A DNA stretch of 64,000 bases from NCBI GenBank assembly GCA_900316965.1, contig ONEY01000013.1, positions 1-64,000 of the forward strand, read 5' to 3'. The notes under the pieces are model-generated. The model was not told the DNA's origin, made no database searches, and worked only from the letters and a program-made list of their open reading frames with translations. This DNA is from an uncultured Bacteroidales bacterium (GTDB taxonomy: Bacteria > Bacteroidota > Bacteroidia > Bacteroidales > P3). Positions 5,289 through 19,439 of this stretch are shown here, in pieces (the stretch's first letter is position 1; the number at the start of each line of letters is the position of its first letter). Made by a program: the position numbers and the translations under genes.

Positions 5289-5573
5289 TTTTCGAGGGCG
5301 CTGACGGCCGAGTTTGGCGATGGATTCACGTGTGACAACCTGAAGAATATGCGCCAGTGCTACTTGACCTACCCAGACAAGGAAATCTGCTACACACTGT
5401 GTAGCAGATTAAGCTGGAGCCACAACAGGTTGATAATGCGTGTGCAAGATAGCGATGCACGAAATTATTATCTGCAAGAGGCAGCACAGGAAGGGTGGTC
5501 GGTGCGACAGTTGGAGCGCAACATAGAGTCGCACAACTACCAACGGCTGCTTGCGGCGCCGAACGTAGATAAG
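5289..5573 (+). pseudogene. YhcG (DUF1016) nuclease N-terminal remnant
   Basis: An open frame without its own start reads SRALTAEFGDGFTCDNLKNM, then MRQCYLTYPDKEICYTL, LSWSHNRLIMRV, ARNYYLQEAAQEGWSVRQLE and NIESHNYQRLLA. This is the conserved DUF1016_N order (FYLxFP, LSWTHYRLLLRV, R-x-Y-x-x-E, W-S-x-R-x-L-E-R-x-I, YxRLL) of YhcG-type proteins, but both the true N-terminus and the whole C-terminal PD-(D/E)xK nuclease domain are missing. After about residue 75 from the internal ATG at 5349 the homology stops. It is a dead fragment at the left edge of the defence island. Confidence 0.8.
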
Positions 5574-5646
5574 CCGCAAACGGCTGTCAATGCACAATTC
5601 CCCGTGTCAGAAAAAAAACATCTTTTTGCGGTTTTATTTCAATAAA

Positions 5647-6254: not shown

Positions 6255-8234
6255 ATGTCTGAAAAAGAAAAAAAATGCAAATGGTATTTTGCGGATCAGC
6301 CGAACGGACAGGAGGTTGGCCCCAATAATGCGATGGAACAAAGTTTCAAAAACCACCCTTACGCCTCGCTCGTAAGGGAGAGCATTCAAAATTCCTTGGA
6401 TGCTATTCTCGACAAGTCGGAACCTGTGGTTGTGAAGTTCTCTTTTATGGAGATGCAGGGTGCTGACTATCCTGAATTTTTTGAACTGCAGCATCACATA
6501 CAAGGTTGCTTGGATTATTTCCCCAATAATCACAACGCCAAGGTTACATACGAACCGATGCTTGAATTGTTTGGAAGTGATGGATACCAGGATCATCTTG
6601 GTTTTATCCGAGTGAGCGACTACAACACCAAAGGCATGAAATACGAGGAAGGCAACACCGATTCGCCATTCTATGCATTTGTCCGTTCCGCCGGTGTGAC
6701 GGTCAAGGACAACTCGTCTGCCGGAGGCTCCTTCGGATTCGGCAAAGCCGCCTACTATCTTCTATCGCCCATCAATGCCATTATTGTCAGCACCTGTACT
6801 GATGACTACCAGAAATGCTTCGAGGGAGCTGCTTCCCTCTGCACCCACACATACAAAGGAGCAAAGAAGATGGGCTTCGGTTTTTATGACGACCATAACG
6901 GAAAACCCATCACCGATGAAAGCGATATTCCCATTAAATTCCGGCGTGCAGAGCCGGGAACCGATATCAACATACTCGGTTTCGACTTGAACGATACAGA
7001 AGAAGCCGTCAGGGAAATGGTCGAAGCTGTGTTACGCAACTTTTGGATGGCTATTTATAATGGACGGTTGGTCGTTAAAATCAACGACGATATTGAGATA
7101 CGGAAGGACAACATCAGCGAATTGATGGAACAGTACTTCGAAGATGACGACGATTCCAGCCGCAAAGCCGGCTACTATAACCCGCGTCCCTATTTCGATG
7201 CCGTGCGCCTGGCCGGAACGTCAGGCAAATATCTGTTTTTTGAGGACAACCTGTCTCTTCTCGGTCACGTGTGCCTATATGTGTTTAAGAAAAAGGGCGC
7301 AATCGACAAGATAGCGTACATGCGATCCTTGCAAATGATTGTTTATAGTAAGCGGCACAAGACCAATCATGGAATGTATGGGGTGTTCTATTGTGATAGC
7401 GAGAAGGGTAACGAACTGTTGCGCAATATGGAAAATCCCGCCCATGACGAATGGAAGTCTAACAACTGGCGTGTTAACGGCAAAATATTTGGTACTGGTA
7501 GGATAGCATTACAGGAGATGGACACATTTATCACCGAGTGCTTGTCGAACGCTTTTGCCCTGAAGGACAAGCAAGCCATCAACATCAAAGGTTTGGAGGA
7601 GTTCCTCTATATCCCCACATCATATGAAGATGATGACGATTTTGAAACAGAATCGCAAACAGGAGATACCACAGGCGACTATAGCGATGACGGGACATCG
7701 ATGACGACGGACATTGCCGATGGTGACGATAATCCGACCATAACCAACTCACCCGCACCGCCGTCCACAGGTCACGTAATGGTGAACAAAACCACTACGG
7801 CGACCAATACAACCGGCGGAAATCTGCGATCCGGTCATGGAGACACTGTGCGCAAGACGAAGACAAAAGGAGTTCAGAAACCTGGCAATGCCAGCGACGA
7901 CCGTACTGAAGACGATTCTGGAGAGAAGGGATTGTTTGCATCACCCGTCAGCATCCCCTACCGTACATTCTCACAACATGAGGATGGAGGCATCTACCAC
8001 TATGTAGTGCTTCATCCTGAGGAAGAAATAGAAAATGTCCGCTTACACTTCTTTGCCGTGGGCGAAGAGAACGACGAAGAACTGCAAATAGCAGAATCCA
8101 ACATAGGAAACATTAGCGGTAATATCATCCGCGACGTTCATCTTACCGAAGGACGCCTGCGTCTACGTGTTCGCTTTACGGACAATATGAAACATTCTAT
8201 TAAACTATCAGCGGAGGAATTATATGAAATATAA
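6255..8234 (+). CDS. GHKL (Hsp90/MutL/MORC-like) ATPase of a restriction-type operon
   Basis: 659 residues. The Bergerat ATP-binding fold is visible: N box RESIQNSLDA (41-50, with the Glu/Asn pair), SDYNTKGM (121-128) in place of the DxGxG box, and GGSFGFGKAAYY (157-168) as the G2/lid glycine loop. The middle carries a second domain (about 230-470), then a low-complexity acidic Thr/Ser/Asp linker (about 475-560) and a C-terminal beta-rich domain (about 575-659). ATPases of this type accompany methyltransferases and nucleases in defence operons (MORC/MutL group). It is the first gene of the operon and overlaps the next by 11 bases. A truncated paralogue lies at 15840. Its role as a DNA clamp or sensor is inferred. 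Confidence 0.85.
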   Translation: MSEKEKKCKWYFADQPNGQEVGPNNAMEQSFKNHPYASLVRESIQNSLDAILDKSEPVVVKFSFMEMQGADYPEFFELQHHIQGCLDYFPNNHNAKVTYEPMLELFGSDGYQDHLGFIRVSDYNTKGMKYEEGNTDSPFYAFVRSAGVTVKDNSSAGGSFGFGKAAYYLLSPINAIIVSTCTDDYQKCFEGAASLCTHTYKGAKKMGFGFYDDHNGKPITDESDIPIKFRRAEPGTDINILGFDLNDTEEAVREMVEAVLRNFWMAIYNGRLVVKINDDIEIRKDNISELMEQYFEDDDDSSRKAGYYNPRPYFDAVRLAGTSGKYLFFEDNLSLLGHVCLYVFKKKGAIDKIAYMRSLQMIVYSKRHKTNHGMYGVFYCDSEKGNELLRNMENPAHDEWKSNNWRVNGKIFGTGRIALQEMDTFITECLSNAFALKDKQAINIKGLEEFLYIPTSYEDDDDFETESQTGDTTGDYSDDGTSMTTDIADGDDNPTITNSPAPPSTGHVMVNKTTTATNTTGGNLRSGHGDTVRKTKTKGVQKPGNASDDRTEDDSGEKGLFASPVSIPYRTFSQHEDGGIYHYVVLHPEEEIENVRLHFFAVGEENDEELQIAESNIGNISGNIIRDVHLTEGRLRLRVRFTDNMKHSIKLSAEELYEI

Positions 8235-9084
8235 GAATGTATCATTGCCATATCCCGTGCTCGGCATCCATGATGATGTATATCCTATGCTCGAGGACGG
8301 ATGCGTACAAATGGAAACACCTGTGAAAACCGCATTGGAGTATCATTTTGGCATCACGCTGACACAAAGGAACAAAGACATCACTACCCTTGTGGCGCAA
8401 GGAAAGGCCGAATATGCCTGTGAGGTCACCTGTAAGGACACCTTCCTGCGTCGTTGCTGGCATTCGTCTATTCCCAAATTCGACATCAGTATAGGCCGAA
8501 AGGAAGTCTCCGGGCACATTGATTTCCAATGTTTCATTGCGGCAAAAGAACCTATACCCGGCTACACCAACAGCGACTTCAACGAAGACTATTATGGATT
8601 CTCGTTTGACCTCGAAATGGGTGATTTGTTGGCCGTGTTCCCGTTGGCTTGGTGGAATACAGAAATCAAGTTTGACAAACTCTATGCGGCAGGTTCATTC
8701 ATGCAGATAGTAGAAGCAGCCGATGGGATTGACAAGACGTGGTTCAACCTCGATGACAATCGAATTCTGATTGAGATGCCGCATGACCTGTTTGTGCAGT
8801 ATCAGCGGATAGGCAATAGTTTTCCGGAGGTTATTCATTCCTCGCTGGTACACAACGCCTTGGTCTATGCGCTGAGTAATCTTGGCGAATATCAAGACAA
8901 AGGCAAGCTATGGGCAGATAGCCTTATGACACGCATTAACGACGACCCACAGCTACAGCAGTATGACCTGAGTGATATGACGCAGGTATATCAAGTTGCA
9001 GACATCCTGCTTCAAGACCCATATAAACGCCTGCTTGACAGTCTTGAGAAGATTGCCGACAGTCAAAACGAAGAGGAGGAATGA
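8224..9084 (+). CDS. Operon protein of unknown function (follows GHKL ATPase)
   Basis: 286 residues; start overlaps the GHKL gene by 11 bases and its stop overlaps the next start as ATGA, so translation is coupled on both sides. No motif that I can name: a beta-rich N-terminal half (CEVTCKDTFLRRCWHSSIPKFDISIGRKEVSGHIDFQ), a FPLAWWNTEI segment, and a helical C-terminus (LVHNALVYALSNLGEYQDKGKLW). The acidic tail NEEEE is exposed. No signal peptide or membrane segment. Because it is locked between the ATPase and the next gene it is most likely an obligate partner of the ATPase. Confidence 0.75.
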   Translation: MKYKNVSLPYPVLGIHDDVYPMLEDGCVQMETPVKTALEYHFGITLTQRNKDITTLVAQGKAEYACEVTCKDTFLRRCWHSSIPKFDISIGRKEVSGHIDFQCFIAAKEPIPGYTNSDFNEDYYGFSFDLEMGDLLAVFPLAWWNTEIKFDKLYAAGSFMQIVEAADGIDKTWFNLDDNRILIEMPHDLFVQYQRIGNSFPEVIHSSLVHNALVYALSNLGEYQDKGKLWADSLMTRINDDPQLQQYDLSDMTQVYQVADILLQDPYKRLLDSLEKIADSQNEEEE

Positions 9085-9839
9085 CAATGGAGTTACAGAA
9101 GGTATTCAAACGATCCTATATGGAGGAACTCCGAAGGAACATCCATATAGACGATTATCAAGGAGATGTTTTCCCCTATGAACCATCCAAGGTGAGACCT
9201 TTGGCTAATGTGTATAAGCCGGAAGGCTTGCTCGACAGGCTCGACCCTGATGACGACTTCTCCTCTGCCAAAGAAATTTATCAAGCATACGAGTCGGTCA
9301 CACCTCTGCTTGCCTCCATGCCTGACTTGTGGGTTTATCTGGCACATGTGGATTTGTTCCCATATGTACAGAAGAGACACTCGGATATTTTTAACGATGA
9401 TGTTACAGAGGAATATATAGTGGACCATTGGTTTAAAAACAAAGTAAGTGTGTTCCGTATGGCATTGCCAAGTGCTTGGTGGAGTGTTTATCTGTCGATA
9501 GATAAATCGCGTGAAAACCCGTACGAACTAACAGAAATCCTTTTTAGGAATCAGGAGCTGCGAACCAATAGCTTTGGGCCTCTAACACTAATCCGTCATA
9601 GAGAAGCAATGATAGGGATTCTTGAGTTCCTAAAAGAACATCAAGAACTACTTGTTGATGGAATGAATATGAGAGCTCAGTACATAAGAAAACTATTCAA
9701 TTTTATTGGGGGAACAAAGAGACTTGAATTTTTAGGAAGGGATTTCTTCAAAGCAGAGCTTGAAAAGAGATATGACATTATTTCAAGGAAATTTTCACGT
9801 GAAGAAATTCAAAACAACAATGAATTGTTTAACGATTAA
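9081..9839 (+). CDS. DUF6339-like protein
   Basis: 252 residues, start in an ATGA overlap with the upstream gene. The stretch LLASMPDLWVYLAHVDLFPYVQKRH, the later ALPSAWWSVYLSID and PYELTEILFRNQELRT recall DUF6339, a family of unknown function that I associate with defence loci, but this is from memory. No catalytic motif is seen. Its base composition changes inside the gene: the first part is around 45-50 % G+C while the last third falls to about 25-37 %, matching the methyltransferase that follows 20 bases later. Confidence 0.6.
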   Translation: MTMELQKVFKRSYMEELRRNIHIDDYQGDVFPYEPSKVRPLANVYKPEGLLDRLDPDDDFSSAKEIYQAYESVTPLLASMPDLWVYLAHVDLFPYVQKRHSDIFNDDVTEEYIVDHWFKNKVSVFRMALPSAWWSVYLSIDKSRENPYELTEILFRNQELRTNSFGPLTLIRHREAMIGILEFLKEHQELLVDGMNMRAQYIRKLFNFIGGTKRLEFLGRDFFKAELEKRYDIISRKFSREEIQNNNELFND

Positions 9840-9859
9840 ATGAATGTGGCGATATATAC

Positions 9860-10876
9860 ATGAAGAAAATCAGAATATTTGAGGGATTTGCAGGTTATGG
9901 CGGTGGTTCTTTTGGACTTAAAAGACTGAAAAAGAATTTGCCGAATATCAACTATGAGGTTATTGGCTACTCTGAATTTGACAAATATGCATCTGAGCTG
10001 TTCGATGCAAACCACAAAAATAAGAATGGAAACCCTCTTAAAAATTGGGGTGATATTACAAAGATTGACCCAAATGAATTGCCCGATTTTGATATGTTTA
10101 TGGGAGGCTTCCCTTGTCAACCATTCTCATCTGCAGGAATGCAGATGGGTACGGAAGACCCTTATGGAAGAGGACAGATGCTTTGGCACATAGTTCGTAT
10201 TTGCAAGGTCAAGAAGCCTAAATATATTTTTTTAGAGAACGTTAAGGGGTTTACTCATGGGAAGTTTCAGCCTATTCATGACCAATTGGTTAAGGATTTG
10301 AGGGATATGGGATACGGGGAGAATCCTTTGGCGAAAGCCGTTCTTAATTCAAAAGACTATGGGATTCCTCAAAATCGTGAACGCCTTTGGATGTTTGCAC
10401 GGTTAGGAGGTTTGCCCGAGAATTTTAACATTATTCCTCCGAGAATAGAATCAGATTTGAAACTTGCCGACTTTCTTGATTATGAGCCTTCAAAATCTCT
10501 TTATCTGTCAGATGCGCAGATCGAACATCTCAAAGAGAAACACCATATCGAATCATTCGTGGTAGACACACCTCTTTGTTTTGATGTCTATAACAAGAAG
10601 ATAAAACGAGATGGATTTAGCATAACAATTACACAACCAGAACACAATAGCCTTCGTATTATTGAGGTCCCAAAAGAAGATGGTAAGGAGATTGTCCGGA
10701 AGATGTCTGTCCACGAGCAGTTTCGTCTAATGGGATTCCGTATTTCGAGAGATTTGAAAGATTGCGAAATTGATTTTAATGGACAATCATATTCGCAGCT
10801 CTCAAAACGAGCAGGAAATGGATGGGATGTAAATTTGGTGGGCATTTTATTAACTCATATATTTAAGCAATTATGA
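9860..10876 (+). CDS. C5-cytosine DNA methyltransferase
   Basis: 338 residues with the classic motif order: I (FEGFAGYGGGSFGL, SAM binding), IV (GGFPCQPFS, catalytic Cys), VI (LENVKGF), VIII (QNRERLW) and X (KRAGNGWDVN). Between VIII and X lies the variable target-recognition region (about 190-280). It methylates cytosine C5 in an unknown sequence and would protect the host from, or mark DNA for, the McrB/McrC-like nuclease encoded downstream. Its stop overlaps the next start (ATGA at 10873). Gene is AT-rich (roughly 30-45 %) relative to the ATPase gene at the operon start. Confidence 0.95.
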   Translation: MKKIRIFEGFAGYGGGSFGLKRLKKNLPNINYEVIGYSEFDKYASELFDANHKNKNGNPLKNWGDITKIDPNELPDFDMFMGGFPCQPFSSAGMQMGTEDPYGRGQMLWHIVRICKVKKPKYIFLENVKGFTHGKFQPIHDQLVKDLRDMGYGENPLAKAVLNSKDYGIPQNRERLWMFARLGGLPENFNIIPPRIESDLKLADFLDYEPSKSLYLSDAQIEHLKEKHHIESFVVDTPLCFDVYNKKIKRDGFSITITQPEHNSLRIIEVPKEDGKEIVRKMSVHEQFRLMGFRISRDLKDCEIDFNGQSYSQLSKRAGNGWDVNLVGILLTHIFKQL

Positions 10877-11457
10877 AATTGAATCTTAGTACATTGGCCT
10901 TTGGATCAATAATAGAGAAAGGTGGAGGAACACCATCATGGGGAACTGAATTGGGTCAATCAAAGCCGGATTACAAGTTTACCATGGAAGGATGCGAAGA
11001 AATACTCATCGGTATGTTGTACAATTCCGTTAATCTGCATCATGTCAGTTTGCCCTTAGGAAAAGGTGGGCATATGGACATTGCATCTAATTTTGAAGAA
11101 TGTCATTTAGCATCTGTGTTCAGAAAAGTTTATATTAATGATATATTGATAGGCTATCCCTTTATGATGGTTTTGATAAAGGAGTTAAGCGCAAGCCATA
11201 CCGGGCGACATTCTATCAAGTATTCAGATAAGATTTCTTATTCTTTTTCAGGAGAGCGTCTTTCAAACCAAGAGTTTTTCCGAGTTGCAAGAAAGAAGTT
11301 GGGGCTTAATTGGGAATCTTGTTGGTTTATCTATGAAATGAACGTACTTAATCAAGATGAACTCCATTTCAAAGCAGTTATAGTAAATAAAGAATATAGT
11401 GAATCATATCGCGATTCTACTGAGAGAAAAGAACATTGGTCGTCATTAATTGATTAA
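10873..11457 (+). CDS. Stand-alone paralogue of the McrB-like N-terminal domain
   Basis: 194 residues, start overlapping the methyltransferase stop. No catalytic motif. It aligns over its whole length with residues 1 to about 180 of the next protein: TPSWGT/CPSWGT, LIGML/VIGMM, LPLGKG/LPIGKG, SVFRKVYIND/SVFDKVFINK, PFMMVLI/PFVMAIV, HTGRHSIKY/HKGRLQLKY, LSNQEFFRVA/VSNQTFFEKA and ELHFKAVI/VLHFKALI. In McrB proteins the N-terminal domain reads the DNA target, so this protein is a candidate free recognition or regulatory subunit. Strongly AT-rich. Function is inferred from paralogy only. Confidence 0.8.
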   Translation: MKLNLSTLAFGSIIEKGGGTPSWGTELGQSKPDYKFTMEGCEEILIGMLYNSVNLHHVSLPLGKGGHMDIASNFEECHLASVFRKVYINDILIGYPFMMVLIKELSASHTGRHSIKYSDKISYSFSGERLSNQEFFRVARKKLGLNWESCWFIYEMNVLNQDELHFKAVIVNKEYSESYRDSTERKEHWSSLID

Positions 11458-11470
11458 AAACTATTAGATT

Positions 11471-13339
11471 ATGAGAATTGATAATTATTCATTATCTTTT
11501 AATTGTCCAGGTTGTCCTTCTTGGGGAACAGCAATTGTAAATCAAGATACACAAAATGTTCATCTTATAAAAGAAGACGTTGCTTCGAATATTGTAATAG
11601 GCATGATGCATAAGTGTGTTACTATTAACACTAATGATTTGTCATTACCTATAGGAAAAGGTTCCAAAATCTATTATGGCAATAAAGGATTTGAAGGTGC
11701 AACTTCTGAACCAATGATGGTTTCAGTGTTTGACAAAGTATTTATAAATAAGATTAGAGTTGATGCACCATTTGTTATGGCAATTGTTCGAGATAAAGCA
11801 AATGACCACAAAGGCAGATTACAACTAAAATATACGCCAAAACTTCAATACGGCCAGGTGTCAAATCAAACTTTCTTTGAAAAAGCCGTCCAAGCTCTAG
11901 ACATTACACCAGATACCCCATGGGTGGTTTATGATATCGATATTGAAGGGCAAGAAGTGTTACATTTTAAGGCTCTCATAGGAGAAGACGTTAAGGACTT
12001 GGATGCACAATTGCGCAATTTGCCACAAATCAAATACACTCCTACTTCATCTGGAATTGAGCATTCCCTGATAAAACCGGCAGAAGAACAAACATTTTTT
12101 GTATCCGAAGAGTATTCATACATTTCCGCAATTAAAACCAAGCCATTTTTGATTCTTGGTGGTTTCTCGGGAACGGGCAAGAGTCAGAAAGTGAAGGAAC
12201 TGGCCTTTGCCACCTGTCCATGCGATGGAGTTTTGAATGTGTCTGAAACATCTCCCGGCAACTACCTACTTGTCAGCGTGAAACCCAACTGGCATGATGC
12301 AACGGATATTACAGGATTCCGTTCGTCGGTGAACAGAAACTATTATGTGACGGATTTCATGCGATTCCTGGTTAAGGCCAAACAGTATGAAGAACAGCAT
12401 GTGCCTTTCTTCGTCTGTCTCGACGAGATGAACCTAGCTCCTGTGGAAGAATACTTCGCCGACTTCCTGAGTGTGATAGAGTCGCGCAAAAGATGTGCCG
12501 ACGGCAGGATAGTGACAGACGCCATAGTACCGGCAAGTGTCTTCAACGACACCGATTATGCCGATGACTTTAACATCTTCTTGAAACTAGGATTGGAACC
12601 TGCCAATCCGGATTGGAAAGCTGACGAGATAAGTGCTCTTTCTGCCGAAGAACAGGCACAGGCCTTTGTCCGTCAGGATATTGTAGATGAGCTAAAACGT
12701 GATGGTTTGACCATTCCGAGTAATGTGGTTATCATTGGCACCGTCAATATGGACGACACAACCAACTCGTTCTCCCGGAAGGTGATTGACCGAGCTATGA
12801 CTTTTGAAACCATTGTGGGCAAGTTCGGTAAAGACTATTTCAGCGGAGATGTGTCCTTGAATTATTTCAAGAATCCCCGCAAGGGAGACCTGTTTTTGAG
12901 CGACGAGGTGCGTGCCAGTCAAATGATAGAAGAGGGCCGTTTTATACTCACCGACGAAGAGCAAACCAAAATTGTTGACTTCATAAACAACATCAACGAA
13001 GACCTGGAGGGAAGCCCGTTCAAAATCAGCTATCGAATTCTGAACGAAACCATACTGCTGTACCGCTCGAAGAAGAAAATAGAGGAAATCATGAAAGCAG
13101 ATGATGGCTTTGAGGACGGCGTCGTATTCAATACCGACCTGAACACAATCTTCGACGATATCCTGATGCAGAAAATATTGCCGCGTATAGAAGGTGATTA
13201 CGAAAAGTGCAGCAGGTGCTTGACAAAACTCTCCCAACGTGCCGAAGACAATTGTTGGAAAAAGAGTTTGGGTAAAATAGAGTTCATGATCAAACGATTT
13301 GGCAACGACAAGAGCGGATTTACCACTTTCTGGAACTAA
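11471..13339 (+). CDS. McrB-like AAA+ NTPase with N-terminal recognition domain
   Basis: 622 residues. Residues 1-185 are the domain shared with the preceding protein; 225-600 are an AAA+ domain of the McrB/dynein-midasin type with Walker A GGFSGTGKS (230-238), Walker B FFVCLDEMN (313-321) followed by LAPVEEYFADFLSVIE, and a sensor region IIGTVNMDDTTNSF. McrB motors translocate DNA and activate a McrC nuclease, here the next gene, 15 bases downstream. The codon/base composition switches sharply near 12150, from about 30 % G+C in the recognition domain to about 50 % in the motor, at the domain border. This looks like a domain swap. Confidence 0.9.
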   Translation: MRIDNYSLSFNCPGCPSWGTAIVNQDTQNVHLIKEDVASNIVIGMMHKCVTINTNDLSLPIGKGSKIYYGNKGFEGATSEPMMVSVFDKVFINKIRVDAPFVMAIVRDKANDHKGRLQLKYTPKLQYGQVSNQTFFEKAVQALDITPDTPWVVYDIDIEGQEVLHFKALIGEDVKDLDAQLRNLPQIKYTPTSSGIEHSLIKPAEEQTFFVSEEYSYISAIKTKPFLILGGFSGTGKSQKVKELAFATCPCDGVLNVSETSPGNYLLVSVKPNWHDATDITGFRSSVNRNYYVTDFMRFLVKAKQYEEQHVPFFVCLDEMNLAPVEEYFADFLSVIESRKRCADGRIVTDAIVPASVFNDTDYADDFNIFLKLGLEPANPDWKADEISALSAEEQAQAFVRQDIVDELKRDGLTIPSNVVIIGTVNMDDTTNSFSRKVIDRAMTFETIVGKFGKDYFSGDVSLNYFKNPRKGDLFLSDEVRASQMIEEGRFILTDEEQTKIVDFINNINEDLEGSPFKISYRILNETILLYRSKKKIEEIMKADDGFEDGVVFNTDLNTIFDDILMQKILPRIEGDYEKCSRCLTKLSQRAEDNCWKKSLGKIEFMIKRFGNDKSGFTTFWN

Positions 13340-13354
13340 AAAAGAGCTATATAC

Positions 13355-15700
13355 ATGGATGTGCTGAGATTTGAATGCCCTCATGAGTCGGGTGACTGCG
13401 ATTTCAGGATCACGATAAGTACTGCCACCATAGAATATGCGTGGGAGCGCTTTAATCGCCGTGTTAAAGAGAGGTCATTGAGTTATTGCGATTACCGCTC
13501 GTTGCGCGAGGGTAAGTTGTCTTTGCTGAACCCATGGGAAGTGAGCTATGAGCTTCGGGATCTGAATCCGGAGGTGCCTCAAACCGAATGGCGCGAGAAA
13601 CATCCTGTGCTGTTCGAAACGTGCGAATACCTATTTGCAGTTGAGTTCAACCACCTCTACGACACTACTGATGTGCGACGACTGCCAAGAGTGAGGCATC
13701 AGATGAAATCTGTAGACGAAGGCTTCCAATTCTACCCCAATGGCAGTCATTCCGGTATTCTGGTAGGGGCTATAGATTTTCTCAACTCTCCCGGGAAATT
13801 CAGCTTCGCGTTTGAATACAGGAATGAGGACAACCAAATTGAGACAGAACAGCTGGAGTTATACGTAGCTTCGCCTAAGTTGGACACAAAAAATGACCTT
13901 CAGCAGATAACAGCTCTAATCAATCAAGAGTACGAGAACTACGTGTTCGACTATTTGACGCTGACATTCAGTAGCTTCTCCCTCGTCAGGACGGAGCGCA
14001 ACAACAGCATAATCTGGCTAAGTATTTTCAAGAATGTCGTTGACGAATACTTCCGAAGCGTCAAATTCATCATGTCTCGTCCAAACAACAAGCCGGTACG
14101 CAAGATCTACTATGCCCGTCCGGAGCGAATACGCCGTTGGGCGCCGCAACAGGAGGAACGATACAGAGATCTTGGTAAGGATGCCGAGATGCATTACTTC
14201 AGGTACGAACAAACGGAGAATACCGTCAACACCAGAGAGAACCGCTTTGTGAAATATTCCCTGCACGTATTGGGGAAAAAGTTCCGCGAGGTGTTTGCAG
14301 AAGTGAGCTCCCTCTACAAAGATATGGCAAAGGAGGAACGGGAAGCGCTGTCGAACTACAATAAAATGTTCAAGCGGCTTGAAACATCGTCGTTCTTCAG
14401 CAAAGTGGGCGAATTCGAGGGGTTCCGTCAGGAGAGTGCCATTCTGCAGCAACGAAGCGGTTACAGCCAAATATATAAAACATGGCTGATGCTGAAAAGT
14501 TCGCTAGAACTGGTTGACGGGAAGACGGATATAGGCTTGAAGAAGATATGGGAACTATATGAGATATGGTGTTTTCTCGTAATGAAACGTCTTATTGCCA
14601 AAGTATTAGGAATTGGTTTGGATGATACCGAACATATACACGAGAATAAATCGGATATGCTGAATACGATGCTGAAAAGTGAAATGTCCCATATGGTAGA
14701 ATTCATAAACCCTGAGAACGGCGATATTGTTCATTTGGAATATCAGCATACATATAGCCGAAATTCGAAAGAGTTTAAAACCACCACTACAGAACAACGT
14801 CCAGATATAGTGGTCACCATTACAAAACCTGACAGATTTGTTCTTACGTATCTCTATGATGCCAAATACCGGGTTCAGGACGACAAGAATGATGGAGAGA
14901 TAGACGAAGGAGCAGACATTGACTTGGCCGATTATCCTCTTCCCGACGCCATCAATCAAATGCACCGCTACCGTGATGCTATCTATTATGCAATGAAAGA
15001 TGATGAGCGACCGAGAGGCAAGGAGGTTATTGGAGGCTATATACTGTTTCCCGGCAGGACAGAAGGTGATGTAGTGGAGAACAGATACTTTTACAAGAGC
15101 ATTAAACAGGTAAACATTGGTGCATTTCCGCTGCTTCCTGCCCAAGAGGATCATAAAGAAAATGTGGTGCTATGCAATTTGCTTGAACGACACCTGAGGG
15201 AGATATTGTTGGATAATACAACATATGAGCAAATCAAGGACAGCATTCCACAGAAGGGTTTACGATATCAGGAGAATGGGGACGGAAACGGAGTTGCAAT
15301 GGTTATGATGGAGAAATATGAAGACAAAGTTAAGTTTTTCGCTGACGGAAAAATAGCTGTTCCTATTAAACTTACAGAAAGCGGAATGTCTCTGCTTGAA
15401 AATCAAGCTAATCTTGCATTTGTCCTATTCCATACCAGGAAGAAAGATGAAAACAAACATTTATTCAGAATTCATAGCATTGTTCGCATACTTTCAAAGA
15501 ACGATGCCGAATATAATGGATATTATCTTATTCAATCAACCTCGAAAAGATATATATGCGTAGAAATTGATATAGAGCAAGAACTAGACAGCTCTGATAT
15601 GAATCCATCGGCTGATAACATTCCTTATGAGACAAAAGAAGAACGCTACGATGCTCAATTTTCAACGTTAGATATATTAAAAAGTAAATCTATTAGATGA
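13355..15700 (+). CDS. McrC-like DUF2357 PD-(D/E)xK nuclease (ends early at an in-frame TGA)
   Basis: 781 residues to the TGA at 15698-15700. N-terminal DUF2357 region includes NTRENRFVKY (292-301). The nuclease core is QRPDIVV (Asp484) then LYDAKYRV (Asp502, Lys504), and QMHRYRDAIYY (535-545), the PD-(D/E)xK plus Q-x6-Y pattern. A further C-terminal domain starts near residue 650 in AT-rich DNA. Past the TGA the same frame stays open for 45 more codons and stops at 15836-15838, one base before the next ATG; so the gene appears to carry a nonsense mutation that removes the end of the last domain. The nuclease core itself is intact. In LlaJI-type systems a McrB/McrC pair plus C5 methylase forms a restriction-modification system. 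Confidence 0.88.
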   Translation: MDVLRFECPHESGDCDFRITISTATIEYAWERFNRRVKERSLSYCDYRSLREGKLSLLNPWEVSYELRDLNPEVPQTEWREKHPVLFETCEYLFAVEFNHLYDTTDVRRLPRVRHQMKSVDEGFQFYPNGSHSGILVGAIDFLNSPGKFSFAFEYRNEDNQIETEQLELYVASPKLDTKNDLQQITALINQEYENYVFDYLTLTFSSFSLVRTERNNSIIWLSIFKNVVDEYFRSVKFIMSRPNNKPVRKIYYARPERIRRWAPQQEERYRDLGKDAEMHYFRYEQTENTVNTRENRFVKYSLHVLGKKFREVFAEVSSLYKDMAKEEREALSNYNKMFKRLETSSFFSKVGEFEGFRQESAILQQRSGYSQIYKTWLMLKSSLELVDGKTDIGLKKIWELYEIWCFLVMKRLIAKVLGIGLDDTEHIHENKSDMLNTMLKSEMSHMVEFINPENGDIVHLEYQHTYSRNSKEFKTTTTEQRPDIVVTITKPDRFVLTYLYDAKYRVQDDKNDGEIDEGADIDLADYPLPDAINQMHRYRDAIYYAMKDDERPRGKEVIGGYILFPGRTEGDVVENRYFYKSIKQVNIGAFPLLPAQEDHKENVVLCNLLERHLREILLDNTTYEQIKDSIPQKGLRYQENGDGNGVAMVMMEKYEDKVKFFADGKIAVPIKLTESGMSLLENQANLAFVLFHTRKKDENKHLFRIHSIVRILSKNDAEYNGYYLIQSTSKRYICVEIDIEQELDSSDMNPSADNIPYETKEERYDAQFSTLDILKSKSIR

Positions 15701-15838
15701 ATTTTAGATCCTATAACATTTGGTGAGATTGATATTGTCTCGTTACTAAATGATTATAAAACTGAAAATAGCAATTATGTGGAGGGTGAACCTATTTATA
15801 TGCTAGGTAAAGACTTGATAAAATTTAGAAAGGCATAA
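15701..15838 (+). other. Detached in-frame tail of the McrC-like gene
   Basis: Directly after the TGA the same frame reads ILDPITFGEIDIVSLLNDYK, continues through VEGEPIYMLGKDLIKFRKA and ends TAA (15836-15838). One base separates this stop from the next ATG (15840), the close spacing seen throughout the operon. The composition matches the upstream C-terminal domain. It is best read as the original C-terminus of the nuclease. Confidence 0.8.
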
Positions 15839-15839
15839 T

Positions 15840-16160
15840 ATGAACCTATTAGAATGTGGCTGTTCATGGCACTTTGCCAAACAACAGGATGCCAGTCAAG
15901 ATGTCGGCCCTAACAATGCAGCTGATGAACACTTTAAAACAACCCCTTATCCTTCTTTGATACGTGAGTCGATTCAAAACTCGCTCGATGTTGTGTTGGA
16001 CAAATCACAACCTTTGAGAATGAAGTTTGAGTTTGGCAAGTTGCGATCTAGAACATTTGAATCTTTCTATGAATTGCGGTCGCATATAGAAGGGGTTATA
16101 TCATTGTACAAAGACAAAGCAAAGCCTCAGTATGAAAACATGCTAAAATGCTTTGATTAA
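15840..16160 (+). pseudogene. Truncated second GHKL ATPase
   Basis: 106 residues that match only the first about 105 residues of the GHKL protein at 6255: DVGPNNAADEHFKTTPYPSL against EVGPNNAMEQSFKNHPYASL, then RESIQNSLDVVLDKS against RESIQNSLDAILDKS, and YENMLKCFD against YEPMLELFG. The N box is present but the ATP-lid glycines and everything after them are missing, so it cannot bind ATP as a whole GHKL domain. Its stop lies inside the 18-bp repeat at 16159-16176, which marks the breakpoint. It is diverged enough from the first copy to be an old paralogue, perhaps the head of a second cassette. Confidence 0.85.
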
Positions 16161-16409: not shown

Positions 16410-17636
16410 ATGAAAAACAGGCCTATTTACACAGCAAAGATTGAACCCTTTATCGACAAACCAATTGTGAAGGTGATTACGGGTATACGACGTAGTGGCA
16501 AGTCTGGATTATTGCAGTTGTTGCAGCAGCACCTGAAAGATCGCGGAGTGATGGAGAACCAAATAGTGTACCTAAACTACGAGAGTTTGCGTTGGTCATC
16601 CTACCGCACCTACGACACGCTGTATGCTTACGTGGATGGGATAAGGCCGAAAGACGCGCGATGTTACCTTTTTATCGATGAGATACAAGAGGTTGCAGAA
16701 TGGGAACGGGCAGTGAACTCAATGATGGTGGATTGGGATGTGGATATCTACATCACTGGGTCCAATTCGAGGCTGCTTTCATCGGAGTTGGCCACCTATC
16801 TTGCTGGGCGATATGTGGAATTTTTGGTTCACCCACTGTCCTACAAAGAATTCCTCTATTTCCACGGCTATAAAAATCTGGAAGGGGGAGATCGTATAGA
16901 CCGTTTCGACCAATACATGCGCCAAGGGGGATTTCCGATGTTCCATCTCTACGACTATAACGATGAAGAGATATATCGTGCCGTACGCGACATTTACGCT
17001 TCTGTTCTGTTGCGCGATACGGTGCAACGTTATTCCATCCGCAATATCGAAATGTTGGAGCGATTGGTGCATTTTCTTTTTGACAACATAGGCAACACGT
17101 TCAGTGCCAGCAGTATAATCCGATATTTGAAGAGTCAGGGCCGTTCGCTTGACAGCGAAACGCTTTATAACTATCTTCAAGCGCTCGAGTCGTCGTTCGT
17201 CATCAACAAAGTGAAAAGATATGACATCAAAGGGAAAGAGTTGCTGAAGACAAACGAGAAATACTATGTCTCCGACCTATCGCTCATTTATAGTGTGAGA
17301 GGTTATACTCCAGAATTGATAGCAGGCATGCTAGAGAATCTTGTATATCTTGAACTTCGTCGCAACGGATACGAGGTGTATACGGGTTGGATGGGTTCGG
17401 CCGAAGTTGACTTTGTGGCTCGCAAAGGCGACGAGGTCGTATACCTGCAAGTAACCAACAACATGGAATCGGATGGAACACGGGAACGAGAATTGCGTCC
17501 GCTGATGACCATCAAGGACAACCATCCAAAATATATCGTCGTGGGCAATCCAATGGTGGCGGGCAACATCGATGGTGTGCGATGTGTGTACATTGGCGAC
17601 TTCCTGCTCGAAATGGAGAACAATACATTGAATTAA
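16410..17636 (+). CDS. AAA_14 / DUF4143 ATP-binding protein
   Basis: 408 residues. Walker A GIRRSGKSGL (25-34), Walker B CYLFIDEIQ (85-93), ITGSNSRLLSSELATYLAGRY as sensor-1 region, then a winged-helix-like middle and a DUF4143 C-terminal domain with YTGWMGSAEVDFVARKGDEV and VYLQVTNN, which resembles a degenerate PD-(D/E)xK core. These proteins are very common in Bacteroidetes genomes, often as several copies in mobile regions; their cellular role is not settled. It has its own promoter and stands alone between the McrBC-type operon and the GmrSD-like gene. Confidence 0.92.
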   Translation: MKNRPIYTAKIEPFIDKPIVKVITGIRRSGKSGLLQLLQQHLKDRGVMENQIVYLNYESLRWSSYRTYDTLYAYVDGIRPKDARCYLFIDEIQEVAEWERAVNSMMVDWDVDIYITGSNSRLLSSELATYLAGRYVEFLVHPLSYKEFLYFHGYKNLEGGDRIDRFDQYMRQGGFPMFHLYDYNDEEIYRAVRDIYASVLLRDTVQRYSIRNIEMLERLVHFLFDNIGNTFSASSIIRYLKSQGRSLDSETLYNYLQALESSFVINKVKRYDIKGKELLKTNEKYYVSDLSLIYSVRGYTPELIAGMLENLVYLELRRNGYEVYTGWMGSAEVDFVARKGDEVVYLQVTNNMESDGTRERELRPLMTIKDNHPKYIVVGNPMVAGNIDGVRCVYIGDFLLEMENNTLN

Positions 17637-17693: not shown

Positions 17694-19439
17694 ATGTCAA
17701 AACTTAGTATTGACCAAAAAACCATTGAGGAATTATTCTCAGATAAGAAAACAGATTTCTTGATTCCTGACTATCAACGCCCTTATGCATGGGAGGACAA
17801 AGAATGTCAGCAGTTGTGGGAGGATATTTTTGCTTTTGCTTTCCCGGATGATAATTATGATAACTTCAACAGTGAAGAGGAATACTATCTGGGTACGATA
17901 GTAACTTACAAAAATGACTCAATTAAGAAGCTTGAAGTCATTGACGGACAACAGCGTTTGACGACTTTGATGTTGCTTTTAAGAGCTTTCTATTCAAAGT
18001 TTGGCAATATGAAAGATGGGAACTCTATCAAAACTAGAGATACTATCGGCAAGTGCCTATGGAAGGGCGACGAATTCGGTAACCTGAACACTAATATTCT
18101 TAAAATTGACTCGCAGGTGGCGACGGATAATGACAAAGACCAGTTTTTGTCAATTCTTCGTGATGGAGTTGCTCCTAAGAACATGAAGAGCCGGTATGCT
18201 GACAACTATCGTTTCTTCGAAGAAAAGATCGCTGATTTCCTCAACAGCTATCCCAGTTTCTTCCCTTATCTACCAAACCGTATCTTGAAAAACTGCATCT
18301 TGCTCCCCATCGAGGCGGAGTCGCAGGATACTGCTTTGAGGATTTTCTCAACGCTCAACAACAGAGGTCTCCCTCTATCGGACGCCGACATCTTCAAATC
18401 TGAATTATATAAGAAATTCTCGAAACTCAATCGTAAAAACGAGTTCATCGATAGATGGAGAGTCTTGGAAGAAAAATGCAACAAGTGTTTCCATCCATTA
18501 ACAGGTACTCCGGTGGATGAATTGTTTACTCGCTATATGTACTATGAACGTGCAAAAATGGACATTACCAAATCAACGACAGAAGCTTTGCGGACGTTCT
18601 ATGGTAAAGATAGTTACAAGCTGTTGAATGAAAAGACAATGGACAACCTGGAATTGTTGATGGATTTTTGGAAGGATGTCCAGGAACAGTCGGAAGAACG
18701 TTTTTCTCCGGAAGTTATCAGACAGCTTTTCATATTGGAATATGCTCCTAATGGTATGTGGACATATTTCCTGAGTGTTTATTTTATGAACAACAAGGAC
18801 AATGATAACATGCTGGATAATGACAAGCTGTATCTTTTCTTGAGAAAAATTACCGCTTTCATTTGGACGTATGCTATTACAAATCCAGGTGTTAACGCCC
18901 TTCGTACCCCGGTATACAAAGAGATGAACAACATCATTCATGGTAAAGAGGTCGATTTCAACGAATACAGGTTTGACGAGGAAAAAACAAAGAATGCTTT
19001 AATGAGCTTCAATTACCTGAATGGACGTCCAATTACCAAATCTATGCTGGTTTGGTGGGCAATGATGTCACAAGGCCAAAGGGTTCCTGATCTGACAACG
19101 GTTTTTGAAATAGAGCATATCTATGCCCGTAACCGAAACGACAAAGAGGGAACTCTGAAAAAGGCTTCCGATGTTGAATTGCTCGGCAATAAGGCTATTC
19201 TTGAAAAACGCATCAATATCAGGGCATCCGATTATAGATTTGAGGATAAAAAGAAATACTATCTGGGGTATACCAATAAACGAAATGAGAAGAAGGATGG
19301 TACAATTGTAAAGGAACTGGAAGACTTTGCCAATGATGCCTCACGTAAAGATTTTGGAGAGCTGGATATCCAGAACCGTACTTCGGACATATTCAAGAAG
19401 TTTTTTGATTATCTGAAGAGTGAGAACCTTTTCGCATAA
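17694..19439 (+). CDS. GmrSD-like DUF262 / DUF1524 protein
   Basis: 581 residues. DUF262 (GmrS-type NTPase) signatures: IPDYQRPYAW (24-33), LGTIV (66-70) and VIDGQQRLTTL (82-92). The middle is helical. The C-terminal DUF1524 (GmrD-type HNH-like nuclease) motif is FEIEHIYARNR (about 470-480), with the expected His; the usual Pro after HI is replaced by Tyr-Ala. Fused GmrSD proteins are type IV enzymes that cut glucosylated hydroxymethylcytosine DNA, typical of T-even-like phages; related single-chain DUF262/DUF1524 proteins occur in BREX and other islands. It stands alone, with the repeat block at 19.5 kb downstream. Confidence 0.9.
   Translation: MSKLSIDQKTIEELFSDKKTDFLIPDYQRPYAWEDKECQQLWEDIFAFAFPDDNYDNFNSEEEYYLGTIVTYKNDSIKKLEVIDGQQRLTTLMLLLRAFYSKFGNMKDGNSIKTRDTIGKCLWKGDEFGNLNTNILKIDSQVATDNDKDQFLSILRDGVAPKNMKSRYADNYRFFEEKIADFLNSYPSFFPYLPNRILKNCILLPIEAESQDTALRIFSTLNNRGLPLSDADIFKSELYKKFSKLNRKNEFIDRWRVLEEKCNKCFHPLTGTPVDELFTRYMYYERAKMDITKSTTEALRTFYGKDSYKLLNEKTMDNLELLMDFWKDVQEQSEERFSPEVIRQLFILEYAPNGMWTYFLSVYFMNNKDNDNMLDNDKLYLFLRKITAFIWTYAITNPGVNALRTPVYKEMNNIIHGKEVDFNEYRFDEEKTKNALMSFNYLNGRPITKSMLVWWAMMSQGQRVPDLTTVFEIEHIYARNRNDKEGTLKKASDVELLGNKAILEKRINIRASDYRFEDKKKYYLGYTNKRNEKKDGTIVKELEDFANDASRKDFGELDIQNRTSDIFKKFFDYLKSENLFA

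What the first reader, a model, noticed from the sequence alone, without database searches (positions are those of the whole stretch)
6255..15838. Seven-gene operon joining a GHKL ATPase, C5 methyltransferase and McrB/McrC-like nuclease
Seen: seven genes on one strand with overlaps or gaps of 0-20 bases; ATPase (Bergerat motifs), two unassigned proteins, complete C5 methyltransferase, stand-alone domain protein, McrB-like AAA+ and McrC-like PD-(D/E)xK protein. Known: LlaJI-type systems combine C5 methylases with McrB/McrC-like subunits, and MORC/MutL-like GHKL ATPases are known from other methylase operons with different effectors. Inferred: this is a hybrid in which a GHKL clamp module with its two partner proteins is joined to a McrBC effector. 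The two partner proteins (8224-9839) are candidates for new defence components.
Basis: partly seen in the sequence, partly recalled or inferred. Interest (0 to 1): 0.82.

Follow-up and report, generated by a model that had tools for sequence, protein, structure and literature searches.

The report
Restriction operon with swappable ATPase cassette
A gut-type Bacteroidales bacterium carries a seven-gene anti-phage operon in which a widespread but unstudied three-gene ATPase cassette, found beside many different restriction systems across bacteria, is joined to a DNA methylase and a McrBC-like DNA cutter; the combination is new in detail, but each half belongs to a kind already predicted.

Summary
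The seven genes are real, tightly packed, and move as one unit: nucleotide similarity to a roe-deer Bacteroidaceae locus begins at the first start codon (6255) and ends at 15679, near the last stop; flanks are unrelated. Genes 1-3 match PADLOC's candidate system PDC-M33A/B/C, so the two 'new' partners are already catalogued, though uncharacterised. Gene 1 carries the ExxxH hallmark of paraMORC2, a GHKL family predicted in 2008 to serve restriction-modification (R-M). Across about 90 loci from at least seven phyla the three genes keep the same order, but the neighbouring R-M system changes: C5/Vsr type II, LlaJI-like, McrBC without methylase, type I, type III. A C5 methylase lies within 6 kb in 29 of 50 full-flank loci, against 2 of 40 GmrSD control loci. 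So this is one instance of a portable R-M accessory cassette, not a one-off hybrid. Genes 4-7 are a LlaJI/BsuMI-like module whose McrB recognition domain was swapped between relatives while methylase and stand-alone domain stayed constant. Right after the operon lies the scar of an overwritten second system with opposite order. Best mechanism (inferred): an ATP-driven clamp that potentiates whichever nuclease it is paired with.

The parts
6255..8234 (+). A: paraMORC2-type GHKL ATPase, 659 aa (PADLOC PDC-M33A)
   Evidence: PDLC04582 E 1e-98; GHKL motifs and ExxxH (E393, H397) conserved in 92 relatives; MORC-specific motif absent in 98/98
8224..9084 (+). B: 286 aa (PADLOC PDC-M33B); Ig/FNIII-like beta-sandwich (about 12-147) plus helical C-terminal half
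   Evidence: PDLC04583 E 3e-43; AlphaFold2 mean pLDDT 90.6; VIA Z 8.2, rmsd 2.7 over 93 residues, perhaps only a common arrangement
9081..9839 (+). C: DUF6339 protein, 252 aa (PADLOC PDC-M33C); compact helical fold without a detected PDB match
   Evidence: PF19866 E 3e-40; PDLC04586 E 7e-23; pLDDT 92.5, pTM 0.89; best VIA Z 3.3
9860..10876 (+). M: DNA cytosine-C5 methyltransferase, 338 aa; the only C5 MTase detected in this genome
   Evidence: PF00145 E 8e-54; one match in G000; 94.7% identical to L018 copy
10873..11457 (+). S: stand-alone homologue of the McrB N-terminal domain, 194 aa; predicted specificity subunit
   Evidence: 32% identity to McrB residues 1-170, E 3e-29; 92.8% identical in L018; no Pfam or PADLOC hit
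11471..13339 (+). McrB-like AAA+ subunit, 622 aa: swapped N-terminal domain (1-200) + NxxD-class motor domain
   Evidence: PDC-M26A E 1e-39; motifs; N-domain about 25% vs motor 78-98% identical to L018
13355..15700 (+). McrC-like subunit: DUF2357 + PD-(D/E)xK nuclease, 781 aa
   Evidence: PF09823 E 4e-29, PF04411 E 2e-35; PD...DAK motif from residue 483
15706..15837 (+). Scar: last 44 codons of a different LlaJI-type McrC gene (no start)
   Evidence: 71% identical to the C-terminus of L047 McrC, E 5e-17
15840..16160 (+). Scar: first 106 codons of that system's own paraMORC2 gene, then truncated
   Evidence: 89.6% identical to L047 A, 47% to the window's own A

Best explanation
The block 6255-15700 is one horizontally moving R-M unit made of two modules. 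Module 1 (A-B-C) is the paraMORC2 / PDC-M33 cassette, an accessory that pairs with many unrelated restriction effectors. Module 2 (M-S-McrB-McrC) is a C5 R-M system of the McrBC-like (LlaJI/BsuMI-like) kind. Proposed working: M methylates a host motif. S, and the variable N-domain of the McrB ring, read DNA; the McrB motor loads McrC, whose PD-(D/E)xK domain cuts DNA lacking the host mark. A dimerises on ATP and closes as a clamp around DNA; B (Ig-like plus helical) and C (helical) are its loader or adaptor; the closed clamp bridges or holds target DNA so that whichever nuclease is present is activated or kept on invading DNA. Shown: gene content, motifs, unit mobility, invariant A-B-C order, partner swapping, McrB N-domain swap. 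Inferred: target polarity, S as specificity subunit, clamp closure and potentiation.
For: A-B-C in the same order and strand in nearly all loci (78 with the plain pattern) and with gaps of 30 bp or less in 80 of 81. C5 MTase within 6 kb in 29/50 full-flank loci versus 2/40 around GmrSD genes, Fisher p 8e-8; any MTase/McrBC/HsdR in 42/50. Partner class changes at least 17 times on the A tree (shuffled labels 21-27), so the cassette is swapped between effectors. In L071 A-B-C is followed by McrB-McrC, with metabolic genes upstream and no methylase seen, pointing to the effector rather than the methylase as the partner. Unit boundaries coincide with gene ends. GHKL catalytic residues intact. Iyer et al. 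2008 (PMC2292703) predicted DNA looping between recognition and cleavage sites for paraMORCs. R1.LlaJI is the DNA-binding subunit and both R subunits are required in vivo (PMC1459862).
Against: No wet-lab data on any A-B-C cassette was found. 8 of 50 full-flank loci show no recognised R-M gene, and in 17 of 54 loci the nearest C5 gene is on the other strand, so tight operon coupling is not universal. No nuclease or DNA-binding domain was found in B or C. Solved structures gave no sequence relatives of A, B or C. The 80 genome loci were picked by similarity to the window's A, so frequencies are not unbiased.
Confidence: 0.5

Rival explanations
1. A-B-C is an independent anti-phage system (PDC-M33) that merely sits next to R-M genes in defence islands; in this window the two were joined by chance and travel together.
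For: PADLOC lists PDC-M33 as a system of its own; 8/50 loci without recognised R-M genes; opposite-strand neighbours in 17/54; other defence genes (GmrSD, PDC-S01) adjoin here.
Against: C5 association is 29/50 versus 2/40 for another island gene, GmrSD; the same A-B-C + C5 + McrBC set recurs with sharp boundaries; the junction with the C5 gene is about 20 bp or less in window, L018 and L019.
Confidence: 0.25
2. A-B-C protects the host from its own R-M system: a MutL-like GHKL ATPase that works with Vsr to repair 5mC deamination, or that restrains self-cutting of transiently unmethylated DNA.
For: Vsr genes near 18 of 90 loci; MutL works with the Vsr endonuclease in very short patch repair and paraMORCs resemble MutL (PMC2292703).
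Against: Vsr is absent from most loci and from this operon; the cassette also pairs with type I and type III N6 systems (L011, L015, L022, L094) and with McrBC lacking a methylase (L071), where there is no 5mC of its own to repair.
Confidence: 0.15
3. The McrB/McrC pair is a type IV enzyme that cuts foreign methylated DNA, and the C5 methylase only marks or competes; the operon is modification-dependent rather than modification-sensitive.
For: McrBC of E. coli is methyl-dependent; L071 has the same McrB family and no methylase seen; the McrB N-domain differs between window and L018 although the methylase is 95% identical.
Against: A methyl-dependent nuclease encoded with its own C5 methylase would cut the host unless motifs differ; methylase-linked McrBC-like LlaJI restricts unmethylated DNA (PMC1459862).
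Confidence: 0.15

Closest known systems
PADLOC candidate system PDC-M33 (A, B, C)
   Same: All three proteins match its models in order A-B-C.
   Different: PADLOC models of that name cover only the trio; the joined C5-S-McrB-McrC module is not among them. No function published in the papers searched.
paraMORC2 GHKL family (Iyer, Abhiman, Aravind 2008, PMC2292703)
   Same: GHKL motifs plus invariant ExxxH; R-M neighbourhoods.
   Different: The text does not mention McrB/McrC partners; whether its figure shows the two partner genes could not be read (figures not held).
LlaJI (two C5 MTases + R1 McrB-like + R2 McrC-like, PMC1459862)
   Same: C5 methylase with McrB-like and PD-(D/E)xK McrC-like subunits in one operon.
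   Different: One methylase instead of two, an extra stand-alone S domain, an A-B-C cassette in front, and a McrB closer to PDC-M26A than to PADLOC's REase_II models.
BsuMI / LlaI three-ORF restriction cassettes (described in PMC1459862)
   Same: Three restriction ORFs (S, McrB-like, McrC-like) beside the methylase.
   Different: There the McrB-like subunit is short (337-343 aa); here it is 622 aa and keeps its own N-domain, a paralogue of S.
Methyltransferase-associated McrBC branches (CoCoNuT census, PMC11090510)
   Same: NxxD-class McrB with DNA methyltransferase association.
   Different: No GHKL or MORC in the text.

Membership tests
PDC-M33 (PADLOC) | Adjacent genes matching M33A, M33B and M33C | tested here: met
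   E 1e-98, 3e-43, 7e-23, adjacent and overlapping
paraMORC2 | N-terminal GHKL ATPase motifs | tested here: met
   R41 E42 Q45 N46 D49, D122, G158/161/163 conserved in 90-92 of 92
paraMORC2 | ExxxH motif C-terminal to the GHKL domain | tested here: met
   E393 and H397 in 92/92
paraMORC2 | S5-fold domain after the GHKL domain | not tested
MORC proper | GhXhhpXXRhl motif in the S5 domain | tested here: not met
   0 of 98 A proteins
LlaJI | Two C5 methyltransferases | tested here: not met
   One C5 gene in the operon and one in the genome
LlaJI | McrB-like subunit with N-terminal specificity domain and P-loop NTPase motifs | tested here: met
   GFSGTGKS, DEMN, GTVNMDD; separate N-domain
LlaJI | McrC-like subunit with PD...D/ExK | tested here: met
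   PF04411, PF09823, motif
LlaJI | Match to the PADLOC REase_II model of 585 positions (taken here as R1.LlaJI by its length, an assumption) | tested here: not met
   No REase_II hit for the window McrB at E up to 1, whereas L047 McrB hits it at 1.6e-31
BsuMI/LlaI three-ORF cassette | Short McrB-like subunit without N-domain, plus a separate third restriction ORF | tested here: not met
   Third ORF S present, but McrB is 622 aa with its own N-domain
Type IV McrBC (E. coli type) | Cleavage dependent on methylation, without a cognate methylase | not testable with these tools
   A methylase is in the operon; target polarity needs an experiment
Mza / Z1-type MORC systems | Z1-domain ATPase in the operon | tested here: not met
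   No Z1 hit in any of the seven proteins

The most novel reading that the evidence does not exclude
A-B-C is a universal add-on for restriction: one ATP-driven clamp cassette that plugs into type I, II, III and McrBC-like systems alike and raises or gates their cutting of invading DNA, so that effector and specificity are exchangeable while the gate is kept; C (DUF6339) would be a new fold and S a free-standing specificity subunit matched to the methylase.
Probability: 0.35. Interest if true: 0.78.

Novelty: new variant of a known kind. Interest (0 to 1): 0.56.

Why it matters
R-M types are usually treated as separate machines with their own motors. A single cassette that recurs beside all of them would be a shared component, as MutL is for different repair nucleases, and would give a testable role to paraMORC2 ATPases, relatives of the MORC silencers of animals and plants. 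The window, L018 and L019 are a natural experiment: same A-B-C and same McrBC motor, different recognition domains and methylases. The scar shows two such systems of opposite gene order competing for one locus.

Tried and rejected
Viral collections: B alone and the A1 profile gave no relatives in viral contigs; one 'phage' record (MT837792, an unverified 6-kb scaffold) holds A-B-C, an HNH gene, M and part of S, and no phage gene was seen in it. The first profile for the genome scan was too diverse. Solved-structure sequence searches for A, B, C, S, McrB and McrC found nothing usable. Foldseek/VIA for B gave only generic Ig/FNIII matches (Z about 8) and for C no match of note (best Z 3.3); this is not proof of a new fold. 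Considered and dropped: MORC proper (motif absent), Vsr-repair helper as the main role (cassette also pairs with N6 systems), assembly artefact (same order in an independent MAG, and in part in an isolate genome, Bacteroides An322). Literature searches for PDC-M33 and DUF6339 found no paper; paraMORC2 only the 2008 prediction.

Full report
Observation. The seven ORFs exist at the stated coordinates on one strand, with overlaps of 4-11 bp or gaps of 13-20 bp. Their product families are: GHKL ATPase (A), B, DUF6339 protein (C), C5 methyltransferase (M), stand-alone domain protein (S), McrB-like AAA+ protein, McrC-like DUF2357-PD-(D/E)xK protein. The operon ends at 15700, not 15838. The genome (2.39 Mb, 39 contigs) has no other C5 methylase detected, so M is the only candidate source of C5 marks there.

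Genes 1-3 are already catalogued. A, B and C match PADLOC PDC-M33A, B and C; C is also Pfam DUF6339. No paper in the library uses the names PDC-M33 or DUF6339. Iyer et al. 2008 (PMC2292703) defined five paraMORC families of GHKL ATPases in R-M operons and gave paraMORC2 a strongly conserved ExxxH motif. In 92 A proteins aligned here, E393 and H397 are invariant, and the MORC-specific motif is absent in all 98. A is therefore best named a paraMORC2 protein; its S5 domain was not tested.

The cassette. A scan of GTDB genomes found 388 relatives of A, of which the best 80 were fetched; with plasmid and other loci this gave about 90 usable loci, from Bacteroidota, Bacillota, Planctomycetota, Pseudomonadota, Chlorobiota, Balneolota, Thermotogota and Cyanobacteriota, plus archaeal plasmid hits. 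A-B-C in that order and strand is nearly invariant, with gaps of 30 bp or less in 80 of 81. A roughly 77-aa gene lies directly upstream in 33 of 92, not in the window. The neighbours differ: C5 MTase, often with Vsr and type II enzymes, on Arthrobacter, Planococcus, Priestia and other plasmids, N6 methylase + helicase + GIY-YIG in Ligilactobacillus, type I-like sets in L015, L022 and L094, LlaJI-like sets in L037, L047, L027 and L023, and McrB-McrC without a methylase in L071, where the upstream genes are metabolic. Among 50 loci with 6 kb on both sides, 29 hold a C5 MTase and 42 hold some MTase, McrBC or HsdR gene. Around 40 GmrSD genes, another common defence family, only 2 loci hold a C5 MTase (p 8e-8); chance from genome density (about 1.5 matches per genome) would be near 1%. 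The control regions are somewhat shorter (mean 10.5 kb), which is too small a difference to explain the gap. On the A tree the partner class changes at least 17 times; shuffled labels give 21-27, so partners are inherited over short spans and swapped often.

The seven-gene unit. L018 (roe-deer Bacteroidaceae MAG) has the same seven genes in the same order. Nucleotide similarity runs from 6255, the first base of A, to 15679, with one break at 11479-12106; flanks do not match. L008 has A-B-C, an extra HNH gene, M and S up to the contig end; L019 (Bacteroides An322) has A-B-C, a different C5 methylase, a second protein with a PPC motif, a 127-aa protein, McrB and McrC. The break is the McrB N-domain: residues 1-200 are about 25% identical between window and L018 while the motor domain is 78-98%, M 94.7%, S 92.8%. 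In L019 the N-domain is not recognisably related while the motor is 77% identical. S and the window's McrB N-domain are homologous (32%, E 3e-29). Inference: the McrB N-domain is a swappable reading head; because M stays constant when it is swapped, S is the better candidate for the part matched to the methylase. This is a prediction, not a result.

Relation to LlaJI. LlaJI has two C5 methylases, R1 (McrB-like, the DNA-binding subunit) and R2 (McrC-like); BsuMI and LlaI have three restriction ORFs with a short McrB (PMC1459862). The window has one methylase, a third restriction ORF (S) and a long McrB, so it resembles both and fits neither. Its McrB matches PADLOC PDC-M26A and not the REase_II models that L047 McrB matches. 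The CoCoNuT census notes that methylase-linked McrBC branches exist (PMC11090510).

The scar. Directly after the McrC stop, 15706-15837 encodes the last 44 residues of a different McrC (71% identical to L047) and 15840-16160 the first 106 residues of its own paraMORC2 protein (89.6% identical to L047 A; 47% to the window's A). L037 and L047 carry two C5 MTases, a 246-aa gene, McrB, McrC, then A-B-C. The window thus once held a system with the opposite module order, and the present operon lies in its place: evidence that such systems replace one another, and that A-B-C was joined to McrBC systems in both orders.

Structures. B: mean pLDDT 90.6; residues about 12-147 form an Ig/FNIII-like sandwich (VIA Z 8.2, rmsd 2.7, 93 aligned), which may only be a common arrangement; the C-terminal half is helical. 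C: pLDDT 92.5, pTM 0.89, compact and helical, best VIA Z 3.3. Neither shows a catalytic signature, so adaptor or loader roles are the simplest guess. Invariant residues in C (A78, W84, W133, W134, with Y67, R99, D141, N207 nearly so) mark a conserved core worth mutating.

Mechanism. Shown: intact ATPase motifs, co-mobility, co-occurrence, effector exchange. Inferred: an ATP-closed A dimer, helped by B and C, clamps or loops DNA and promotes cutting by the resident nuclease. This follows the looping idea of Iyer et al. and is favoured over a repair or host-protection role because the cassette also pairs with N6 systems and with McrBC lacking a methylase. An independent defence role with R-M as a frequent neighbour remains possible (about 25%).

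Limits. The 80 loci are the closest to the window, many are MAG contigs, gene calls are simple ORFs, and partner classes rest on clustering, motifs and a limited number of Pfam scans. No experiment has tested any A-B-C cassette in the sources read.

Noticed in passing
window 15706-16160: Scar of a second, opposite-order LlaJI-like + A-B-C system: tail of its McrC followed by the head of its paraMORC2 gene, both closest to Xylanibacter brevis L047.
   Followed up: yes
window 16410-17636 and 17694-19439: Two further defence-type genes downstream: AAA_14/DUF4143 protein (PADLOC PDC-S01, E 3e-151) and a GmrSD (DUF262) type IV-like protein; a Bacteroidales-type promoter-like sequence (TATCTTTGCA) precedes the first.
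   Followed up: partly
window 5349-5645: 98-aa ORF in the same cluster as 337-375 aa proteins in other loci (looks like a DUF1016/YhcG-type nuclease, from memory), so a likely gene remnant upstream of the operon.
   Followed up: no
L006:17344-17580 and 34 other loci: A conserved ~77-aa protein (KRxRFxxVAxxRVQKxLDxLxLLxNCSNRxNYxY) lies directly upstream of the cassette in a third of loci; no firm Pfam family.
   Followed up: partly
L074, L077, L079, L082, L091, L094, L095: In Bacillales the cassette often sits near a PLD-helicase-HNH protein (about 806 aa) preceded by a ~108-aa gene, a possible further partner system.
   Followed up: partly
L017:3525-5429 and 11896-13788: A Halobacterium plasmid carries two diverged A genes near a C5 methylase-like gene, showing the family in archaea.
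   Followed up: no
window 1-24000: The operon and the genes after it are AT-richer (GC 0.34-0.48) than much of the rest of the window (about 0.50-0.57), in line with recent acquisition.
   Followed up: no
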